A stretch of DNA of 64,000 bases, from positions 62,001 through 126,000 of the forward strand of contig DASXVS010000046.1 of NCBI GenBank assembly GCA_036504095.1. The letters are read 5' to 3'. The notes under the pieces are model-generated. The model had not been told where the DNA came from. It made no database searches and saw nothing but the letters and a program-made list of their open reading frames with translations. The position numbers and the translations under genes are program-made. Source of the stretch: Armatimonadota bacterium. Its GTDB lineage: Bacteria; Armatimonadota; DTGP01; JAKQQT01. Below are positions 46,454 to 49,234 of this stretch, piece after piece. How positions within the stretch are numbered: the first letter of the stretch is position 1; each line of letters begins with the position of its first letter.

Positions 46454-47176
46454 CTATTCGATGAGCTTCCACTTCAGTTTGGTGGAAGGATCGGACTTTG
46501 CGGTGTAAACCTTGGTTGGATCCGCCGATCTGAACTGAATCGTGAATATCCCGTCTGCGGACTCGGCCAACGAGAGCACATCGATCACCGCATTGTGATC
46601 CACCATTCCCGAAGCGGGGAGCGACGCATACCCCACCAACTCAGCTACCGGTACGAAGAACTGCCTGGTCGTCGGCTTCTTCATCACGACCCAATCGGAG
46701 AAGCTCGCGGCTTTGTCTTGCGTCTTGCCGACCTCATCACCCAAGATCACAAAGCCGCTGATGGAAGTTAGGTAGGATCGACCGGTCTCGGTGGTCCACA
46801 TGTGAAACCGCCCTAAGGCGAAATCCGACCACAAGTACCAATGAAACGATTTGTTGGTATCCGTCGACCTCACCTCATAGCAGTATCGGTCGAAAGCCCT
46901 GTCCTTTCGTCCCAGGCCGCTCACCTCCCGGTATTCGCAACGATGATACGTGCCGCACACCTCTACCGGTACGAGAACCGATCTGCCGTCCGGTTGGGTA
47001 ATTGGAAGTATGGCACTGGGCAGCACTCGCTTTTCGGAGCCTTTCGGTTCGAGTTTCCTGATAATGCACTGGGTCGGGATACCGGGTGGCCTTGGCACCT
47101 CGGCGTTCGCATTTCCCGCGCAGGCGAGCAGAAGGGGAAGGGATAATGCCGTCAACAGGCCCAGGCGAACTCGCAT
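46454..47176 (-). CDS. Exported protein of unknown function, probable lipoprotein
   Basis: 240 residues from the ATG at 47176 with GGAGG six bases upstream. The signal contains LLLAC at residues 15-19, a plausible lipobox; cleavage after NANA is the alternative. The mature part is globular and Cys-containing (CIIRKLEPKGSEKRVLP, VCGTYHRCEYREVSGLG, CYEVRSTDTNKSFHWYLW) with a likely beta fold. I recognise no family. Confidence 0.7.
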   Translation of the reverse strand: MRVRLGLLTALSLPLLLACAGNANAEVPRPPGIPTQCIIRKLEPKGSEKRVLPSAILPITQPDGRSVLVPVEVCGTYHRCEYREVSGLGRKDRAFDRYCYEVRSTDTNKSFHWYLWSDFALGRFHMWTTETGRSYLTSISGFVILGDEVGKTQDKAASFSDWVVMKKPTTRQFFVPVAELVGYASLPASGMVDHNAVIDVLSLAESADGIFTIQFRSADPTKVYTAKSDPSTKLKWKLIE

Positions 47177-47442
47177 GACGCACCTCCTCGCGAACAACAG
47201 TGCGCTTGGTGGCATGTCTTGATGGTCACTTCGCGCGAGAAGAGTTTTGGCTCACAGGGATTGTCCCCCCCCGGCTTACTTGTCAAGGATTCGATATATA
47301 AGAGTTGCGTATGCCGTTTATCCACTGTGTTACCGGCGACCGCTTCTACTGAACGGTGACGGTACTCATCGCTCATCGTTCATCCTTCATCGTTTAGCCC
47401 AATCTCTCGCTATCCAGCGAAGAACGTGGTAACATAGAGACA
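47177..47442. other. Gap with a heptamer array, upstream of the 6S RNA
   Basis: No protein gene. Contains an array of TTCATCG-type units (about 47362-47396) and, near 47430, TAACAT, a possible -10 box for the 6S RNA. Confidence 0.6.
47362..47396. repeat. Heptamer array, unit TTCATCG/CTCATCG
   Basis: Four to five 7-base units. The complement of this unit is close to the GATGAAC array in the glycosyltransferase gene. Confidence 0.8.
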
Positions 47443-47632
47443 GCAAGGGGCTCCCTGCGGTATTGGTGCTGGGTACGTTCGTGTTGAGCCGACAATCACT
47501 CTAAGGGCTGCGAGCGTGCGTACCGGGTGGTACCCGGCCTGGATCCGGGGGCATTACGTACGTGCCGAGCGGCCCACCCTTCTACCAGAAGGGTTCAAAC
47601 ACGACTCCTCACGGTACTCGCGGGTCCCTTGC
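47443..47632 (+). ncRNA. ssrS: 6S RNA
   Basis: About 190 bases that fold with the architecture of 6S RNA, which binds and inhibits the sigma70 RNA polymerase. The closing stem pairs GCAAGGG (47443-47449) and CCCTGCGG with CTCGCGGG and CCCTTGC (47626-47632). After a central bubble, CGTGTTGAGCC (47480-47490) pairs with GGGTTCAAACACG (47591-47603). A small hairpin CCCTTCT-ACC-AGAAGGG lies on the 3' side, and the terminal stem pairs GTGCGTAC with GTACGTGC. GAGCCGA and AAGGGTTCAA also match E. coli 6S RNA at the same places. It lies 24 bases beyond the 3' end of the yihY-like gene, on the opposite strand. Confidence 0.82.
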
Positions 47633-47656
47633 AACCCTTTCCCCCACGGCCCTCCG

Positions 47657-48562
47657 TCACGGCATCGGCGCGGGACTCGAGAGCTTTTCGGCCGGGCTGA
47701 GCGCCTCATTCCCCTCCTGGTGACGCAGCCTCTGGTCGGCCTGCCACGCCAGTTCGGCGCCCAGCAGGAGCACGATCATCGAGTAGTAGATCCACATGAC
47801 GAGGATGATGACGCCGCCCAGCGAGCCGTAGACCACGTCGAAGTGCCCGTAGTGTTTCAGGTACCAGCGGAAACCCAGCAGCGCGAGGTGCCACAGCAGG
47901 CCGCCGACGACGCCGCCGAGCAGAGCCGCCCGGAAATGCACGCGCGTGTTGGGCAGGATGTAGTAGGTCGCGGTGAACATGGCCACGCCGAGCAGGATGG
48001 GGACGAGGTATCCCATAGCGTGCCAGAACACCGGCAGGTCCGGAGTCTGGTGGCCGAAGACGCGCCAATGCAGGCCCTCGATCCGCAGCGTGATGGCGGT
48101 GAACGCGAGCGACACGAGCAGCCCGGCGCCGACAAGCAACAGCATGGCGGTCGCCAGCAATCGCGATTTCAGGAATTTTCGCTTCTCGACATCCCACGTC
48201 ATGCAGAGCGCGGTTTCCATGTTCACGAAAGCGCCCGTGGCGGTCCACAACAGGACGAGCACACCGACCGCCAGCACCTTGCCGCGCGTGGCCACGATGT
48301 TGCCCAGCGTGGTGCGCACTATATCGGCCACCGGGCCGGGCGCGTAGGACTGGAAGAAATCCATCACCTGATGGAAAGCCTTCTGTGATCCCACCACGTA
48401 GCCCAGGGCGGACACGCCGAACAGCAGCAGGGGGAAGAGGGAGAGGGTCGCGAAGAAGCTCATCGCGGCGGCCATGATCGGGCCGTGGTCATGAAGGAAC
48501 TCGCGCACCACCGTCCTGACGAATCGCCACACGCGGATCATTGGCTTGATTGTGTGGGACAT
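47657..48562 (-). CDS. YihY/BrkB family inner-membrane protein
   Basis: 301 residues with six predicted membrane spans, of the family once called ribonuclease BN or virulence factor BrkB. Visible signatures: AAAMSFFATLSLFPLLLFGVS near residue 31, GVLVLLWTATGAFVNMETAL near 100, and YGSLGGVIILVMWIYYSM near 245. Its role in membrane biology is unclear in all species. It lies 18 bases downstream of lepB on the same strand, so the two are probably co-transcribed. Confidence 0.92.
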   Translation of the reverse strand: MSHTIKPMIRVWRFVRTVVREFLHDHGPIMAAAMSFFATLSLFPLLLFGVSALGYVVGSQKAFHQVMDFFQSYAPGPVADIVRTTLGNIVATRGKVLAVGVLVLLWTATGAFVNMETALCMTWDVEKRKFLKSRLLATAMLLLVGAGLLVSLAFTAITLRIEGLHWRVFGHQTPDLPVFWHAMGYLVPILLGVAMFTATYYILPNTRVHFRAALLGGVVGGLLWHLALLGFRWYLKHYGHFDVVYGSLGGVIILVMWIYYSMIVLLLGAELAWQADQRLRHQEGNEALSPAEKLSSPAPMP

Positions 48563-48580: not shown

Positions 48581-49234
48581 TCAGCGGCAGGCGTTCATCG
48601 GCAGTTGGGTGGCCGGCCCGGCGATGGGCATTCCGCGGATGGCGCCCATGCGCTGCGGCGGCCAGAGCACGATGCTGGCGCGGCCGCGAACCAGGGCCAT
48701 TGGAAGGAACGGGATCGGCCAAAGATGGCTGTCGAAACTCCGGTTCCGGTTATCGCCCAGGACGAAGAGACTGCCCGGCGGCACCCTCGCTTCAGCGTAG
48801 TTGTAGTCCGGCATCGTCTCTTCGTACGACTCCTTCAGCGGATTTCCGTTCACGAAGACGATGCCGTCCTTCACCTCCACCGTCTCACCGGGAACGGCGA
48901 TGACGCGCTTGATGTAGTCTGCCTGGGGATCCGTCGGTGAGCGGAACACGATGACGTCGCCGCGCTCCGGCACGCGCCACCGGTAGGTGAGCTTGTTGAT
49001 GAGCGTGTACTCGCCGCCGTGCAGGGTGGGCGCCATGGAGATGCCCTCGACACGGGATATCTGCAGGAGGAAAGTCACCACGAAGATAGCGACCACGCTG
49101 GCGATGATCCCGCTGTCCGTGTATTCGGCGATCGCGGACCGCACCCTCGCCGGCACGAAGCGCGCGAAAGTGGCCAGCCGGAAACCGGCCAGCACAGCGA
49201 ACACCACGAACAATTTGAGGTAAACGGATTCCAT
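48581..49234 (-). CDS. lepB: Signal peptidase I
   Basis: 217 residues; removes signal peptides of exported proteins at the outer face of the inner membrane. Two N-terminal membrane segments (about 5-22 and 43-60) precede the catalytic domain. The Ser is in GISMAPTL, the Lys in [12 protein letters not shown], and box E reads [11 protein letters not shown]. The ATG at 49234 abuts a heptamer array, with no ribosome site; the first membrane segment begins right after it. yihY follows. Confidence 0.95.

What the first reader, a model, noticed from the sequence alone, without database searches (positions are those of the whole stretch)
47443..47632. Unannotated 6S RNA between the unknown lipoprotein and yihY
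Closing stem, central bubble, 3'-side small hairpin and terminal stem all appear in order over 190 bases, and short conserved strings (GAGCCGA, AAGGGTTCAA) match E. coli 6S RNA at equivalent places. It adds a global transcription regulator to this genome.
Basis: partly seen in the sequence, partly recalled or inferred. Interest (0 to 1): 0.6.

Follow-up and report, generated by a model that had tools for sequence, protein, structure and literature searches.

The report
Ordinary 6S RNA in an Armatimonadota genome
The 190 bases are a genuine, single-copy gene for 6S RNA, the well-known small RNA that imitates an open promoter and holds RNA polymerase in resting bacteria; it is a routine new member of a known family, in a little-studied bacterial phylum (Armatimonadota).

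Summary
Rfam's 6S model (RF00013) matches window 47449-47630, + strand, over its full length at 57.8 bits (cut-off 46.4, E 7e-9). It is the only Rfam hit over threshold in the window and the only 6S found in the 4.68-Mb genome. A terminal stem GCAAGGG/CCCTTGC extends the element to exactly 47443-47632. By its PheS protein the genome belongs to Armatimonadota. 6S genes were found in 97 of 255 genomes of the phylum with Rfam's model and 120 with a phylum model. A model built without the window's own family finds only this place in the window (66.9 bits, E 1e-15). The Rfam structure shows strong covariation across 44 relatives. The predicted pRNA start template (C47493) is invariant in all 44, and the predicted pRNA (5'-GUCGGCUCAACACGAA) resembles those of E. 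coli and B. subtilis. An extended -10-like element (TGGTAACAT) ends 7 bases upstream. Expression and polymerase binding are inferred, not shown. This is an ordinary new member of a known kind. One side lead: 6S was undetectable in Fimbriimonas-like and several other Armatimonadota lineages whose SRP RNA was found.

The parts
47443..47632 (+). 6S RNA gene (whole structured element, 190 nt)
   Evidence: RF00013 47449-47630, 57.8 bits; leave-out model 47443-47636, 66.9 bits; terminal stem
47427..47435 (+). extended -10-like promoter element TGGTAACAT, ending 7 bases before 47443
   Evidence: sequence; similar elements upstream of most relatives, the same TGTGGTAACAT in L042 and L050; no matching -35 by simple scan
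47443..47467 (+). 5' strand of the closing stem
   Evidence: pairs with 47611-47632
47611..47632 (+). 3' strand of the closing stem
   Evidence: helix 1 paired in 90.8% of cells in 44 relatives
47481..47490 (+). helix P2, 5' strand (GUGUUGAGCC), template of the pRNA
   Evidence: helix 2 paired in 93.8% of cells
47491..47504 (+). 5' side of the central bubble, with the predicted pRNA start template C47493
   Evidence: C invariant in 44 of 44
47505..47575 (+). terminal arm (apical irregular hairpin)
   Evidence: helices 3-5; fold
47576..47594 (+). 3'-bubble hairpin ACCCUUCU-ACC-AGAAGGGU; overlaps the 3' strand of P2 at 47592-47594
   Evidence: comparable hairpin better than shuffles (p < 0.1) in 36 of 44 relatives; probability 0.80 in the free RNA
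47592..47602 (+). helix P2, 3' strand (GGUUCAAACAC)

Best explanation
A 6S RNA gene, transcribed on the plus strand from a sigma-70-type promoter into an RNA of about 190 nt. The RNA folds into one long irregular hairpin with a central bubble that looks to the RNA polymerase holoenzyme like a melted promoter. It occupies the enzyme and so sequesters the housekeeping holoenzyme when growth slows. When nucleotides return, the polymerase uses the RNA as template, starting opposite C47493, and makes a short pRNA (about 13-14 nt, 5'-GUCGGCUCAACACG). This opens helix P2, the 3'-bubble hairpin (47576-47594) takes the freed strand, and the polymerase is released. Shown here: sequence and structure homology, covariation, invariant start template, promoter-like element. 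Inferred from E. coli and B. subtilis 6S: expression, polymerase binding, pRNA synthesis, release.
For: RF00013 full-length match above the curated cut-off, single copy in the genome. Leave-family-out model, 66.9 bits, E 1.4e-15, only hit in the window. Covariation on 44 relatives: 83.2% of cells paired against 72.5% in shuffles and at most 46.2% when slid; 264 two-sided changes against 106. Invariant C47493; predicted pRNA GUCGGCUCAACACGAA against E. coli AUCGGCUCAGGGGACU and B. subtilis GUUCGGUCAAAACUA (PMC12005410). Conserved kind of extended -10 upstream. Hairpin and P2 anatomy as in PMC8876501.
Against: No transcript data. The folding z-score is modest. The outermost Rfam pairs are replaced by a different stem. 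No -35 or terminator was found by simple scans. Gene order around 6S is not conserved.
Confidence: 0.96

Rival explanations
1. A decayed or silent 6S gene: the homology is real, but the RNA is no longer made or no longer binds polymerase.
For: The score is among the lower ones in the phylum (57.8 bits; best 107), and no expression data exist.
Against: The terminal stem is intact with its own complementary replacement, the start template and P2 are kept, and a -10-like element stands at the right distance. The family relative has its own diverged but foldable copy at 62.3 bits in the leave-out model.
Confidence: 0.03
2. A chance G+C-rich inverted repeat (for instance a terminator between convergent genes, or part of a coding frame) that only resembles 6S.
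For: The region is 63% G+C and folds well; a plus-strand ORF (47516-48388) overlaps it; folding energy alone is not decisive.
Against: E-values of 7e-9 and 1e-15 from two separately built models; covariation; no T-run terminator; the ORF lies mostly antisense to yihY and matches no Pfam family.
Confidence: 0.01

Closest known systems
6S / SsrS RNA, Rfam RF00013 (family level)
   Same: Full-length match above the gathering score; closing stem, P2, bubble and terminal arm in order; about 190 nt
   Different: Outer closing stem uses a different set of pairs (GCAAGGG/CCCUUGC) than Rfam's consensus
Bacillus subtilis 6S-1 RNA
   Same: Predicted pRNA starts with G opposite a C; phylum form GUUGGCUCAAAACU is close to GUUCGGUCAAAACU; a 3'-bubble hairpin is predicted already in the free RNA
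   Different: A central-bubble collapse helix was not tested here; the hairpin is longer (8 pairs against 5-7)
Escherichia coli 6S RNA (ssrS)
   Same: GAGCCGA in the template strand; predicted pRNA GUCGGCUCA against AUCGGCUCA; 3'-bubble hairpin shares bases with the 3' strand of P2 (PMC8876501)
   Different: pRNA predicted to start with G rather than A; overlap of hairpin and P2 is only three bases
Ms1 RNA of Actinobacteria
   Same: Bubble-containing small RNA that binds RNA polymerase (PMC9130861)
   Different: Ms1 is about 300 nt with extra hairpins at both ends and binds core polymerase; this element is about 190 nt and matches RF00013

Membership tests
6S RNA (RF00013) | Covariance-model score above the curated gathering score | tested here: met
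   57.8 against 46.4 bits, full model
6S RNA (RF00013) | Conserved rod-like structure with closing stem, P2, central bubble and terminal arm, supported by covariation | tested here: met
   44 relatives, 34 of 51 pairs with two-sided changes, no shuffle of 500 as high
6S RNA (RF00013) | Conserved pRNA start template in the 5' side of the bubble | tested here: met
   C47493 invariant in 44 of 44; the start point itself is inferred by analogy with PMC12005410
6S RNA (RF00013) | Length of about 180-200 nt | tested here: met
   190 nt between the ends of the closing stem; transcript ends not measured
6S RNA (RF00013) | Abundant transcript, binding to housekeeping RNA polymerase holoenzyme | not testable with these tools
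   needs northern blot or sequencing and a binding assay
6S RNA (RF00013) | Template for pRNA synthesis and release | not testable with these tools
   needs in vitro transcription or small-RNA sequencing
Ms1 RNA | About 300 nt, with extra hairpins at both ends (PMC9130861) | tested here: not met
   the element is closed by its terminal stem at 190 nt

The most novel reading that the evidence does not exclude
Armatimonadota 6S RNAs, this one included, combine a B. subtilis-like G-initiated pRNA with an E. coli-like 3'-bubble hairpin that competes with helix P2, and so release polymerase by an arrangement intermediate between the two studied types.
Probability: 0.2. Interest if true: 0.3.

Novelty: new member of a known kind. 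Interest (0 to 1): 0.15.

Why it matters
For this genome it is a routine annotation: one global regulator of transcription, as in most bacteria. It comes from a phylum for which the open-licence literature held here returned no 6S study (one paper with an incidental mention), and the alignment made here predicts the pRNA of each member. The patchy distribution in the phylum is the more useful by-product: lineages with SRP RNA but no detectable 6S could be used to ask what replaces it.

Tried and rejected
Conserved gene order was looked for and not found: no flanking window protein matched any other 6S locus (up to about 1.5 kb on each side). Folding energy alone was rejected as proof (z = -2.9). 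RNAalifold's own consensus (model R1, 34 pairs) kept fewer pairs than the Rfam structure and was not used further. Model R2 has the window in its training set, so only the leave-out model R3 is quoted as evidence for the window. The simple promoter and terminator scan found nothing. A central-bubble collapse helix was not tested.

Full report
Observation. A scan of the whole 64-kb window against all 4227 Rfam families gives one hit over a curated cut-off: RF00013 (6S), 47449-47630, + strand, full model, 57.8 bits, gathering score 46.4, E 7.4e-9. Some outer pairs of the Rfam model do not fit this sequence (47451-47453), but the sequence makes its own: GCAAGGG at 47443-47449 faces CCCUUGC at 47626-47632 (pair 47446-47629 has probability 0.998).

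More than chance? Folding is only moderately better than in shuffled sequence (z = -2.9). The homology is decisive. I collected 6S candidates from the phylum with RF00013 and aligned 44 with MAFFT, which ignores structure. The Rfam structure, carried over through the window's row, was counted on this alignment: 83.2% of cells paired (shuffles 72.5%, slid versions at most 46.2%), 34 of 51 pairs with two-sided changes, 264 such cells (shuffles 106), covariation 0.336 (shuffles 0.165, slid at most 0.120); none of 500 shuffles reached any observed value. Caveats: the shuffles do not allow for relatedness, the candidates were found with the Rfam model, and a structure taken from the sequences tends to beat its slid versions. 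A model built from 37 sequences without the window and its family relative scores the window at 66.9 bits, E 1.4e-15, as the only match in 64 kb at E <= 10, and the family relative L027 at 62.3 bits.

Genome and distribution. The window lies in a 4.68-Mb assembly of 80 contigs, 98.6% complete, with one 6S gene. The PheS relatives are almost all labelled Armatimonadota or groups within it, 50-61% identical (one record labelled as an archaeon is probably mislabelled). RF00013 finds 6S in 97 of 255 genomes of the phylum, among them the one other genome of the same family (46.2 bits, just under the cut-off) and one of the same class (70.1 bits). The phylum model R2 raises this to 120.

Surroundings. 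The gene lies between a lipoprotein-like protein without a Pfam family (46454-47215, -) and YihY/BrkB (47657-48562, -, PF03631), which is followed by a signal peptidase (48581-49234, -, PF10502). A plus-strand ORF (47516-48388) overlaps it, but it lies mostly antisense to yihY and has no Pfam match. No window neighbour is found beside 6S in the other loci. An extended -10-like TGGTAACAT (47427-47435) ends 7 bases before 47443. Similar elements stand upstream of most relatives, and L042 and L050 have the same TGTGGTAACAT. The simple scan, which also asks for a -35, found no promoter and no terminator.

How it works. In E. coli and B. subtilis, 6S RNA binds the housekeeping holoenzyme through its bubble and is copied into short pRNAs on nutrient return; helix P2 then opens and the polymerase is released (PMC8876501; PMC12005410). 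The parts are in place here: P2 (47481-47490 with 47592-47602), the bubble, and a C at 47493 that is invariant in all 44 sequences. Read from there, the predicted pRNA is 5'-GUCGGCUCAACACGAA; the common form in the phylum is GUUGGCUCAAAACU, against AUCGGCUCAGGGGACU in E. coli and GUUCGGUCAAAACUA in B. subtilis. A hairpin on the 3' side of the bubble (47576-47594) shares three bases with the 3' strand of P2. It is predicted in the free RNA (probability 0.80) and is kept when the template strand is blocked as by a bound pRNA. A comparable segment folds better than its shuffles (p < 0.1) in 36 of 44 sequences. All functional steps are inferred; none was measured.

Verdict. The by-product worth keeping is that 24 Armatimonadota genomes gave no 6S with RF00013 at E <= 0.1 nor with R2, while SRP RNA was found in all 24 and in the window's own genome. 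This is absence of detection, not proof of loss.

Noticed in passing
genomes behind L060, L062, L063, L066, L071, L073, L076, L079, L080, L082, L083, L086, L088, L091, L094, L095, L099, and genomes G014, G022, G025, G028, G029, G043, G060: No 6S RNA was detected in these 24 Armatimonadota genomes (many labelled Fimbriimonas or Fimbriimonadaceae, two of them single-contig) with RF00013 or the phylum model R2, although SRP RNA was found in all of them. 6S is lost or has diverged beyond recognition there.
   Followed up: partly
L022 and L029 (genome G003); L019 and L028 (genome G017): Two 6S copies in two genomes of one family; the second copy has a diverged P2 and bubble (AGTTATTACCCAGCACC, predicted pRNA GCUGGGUAAUAACU), like a 6S-2 paralogue.
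   Followed up: no
L027:1501-1682 (genome G001): The same-family relative scores 46.2 bits with RF00013, 0.2 under the cut-off, so a default annotation would miss it; the leave-out phylum model finds it at 62.3 bits. With R2, 120 instead of 97 genomes of the phylum have a match: Rfam's model under-calls 6S in this phylum.
   Followed up: yes
window 46454-47215 (-): Lipoprotein-like protein (signal peptide ending LLLAC in its translation) with no Pfam family.
   Followed up: no
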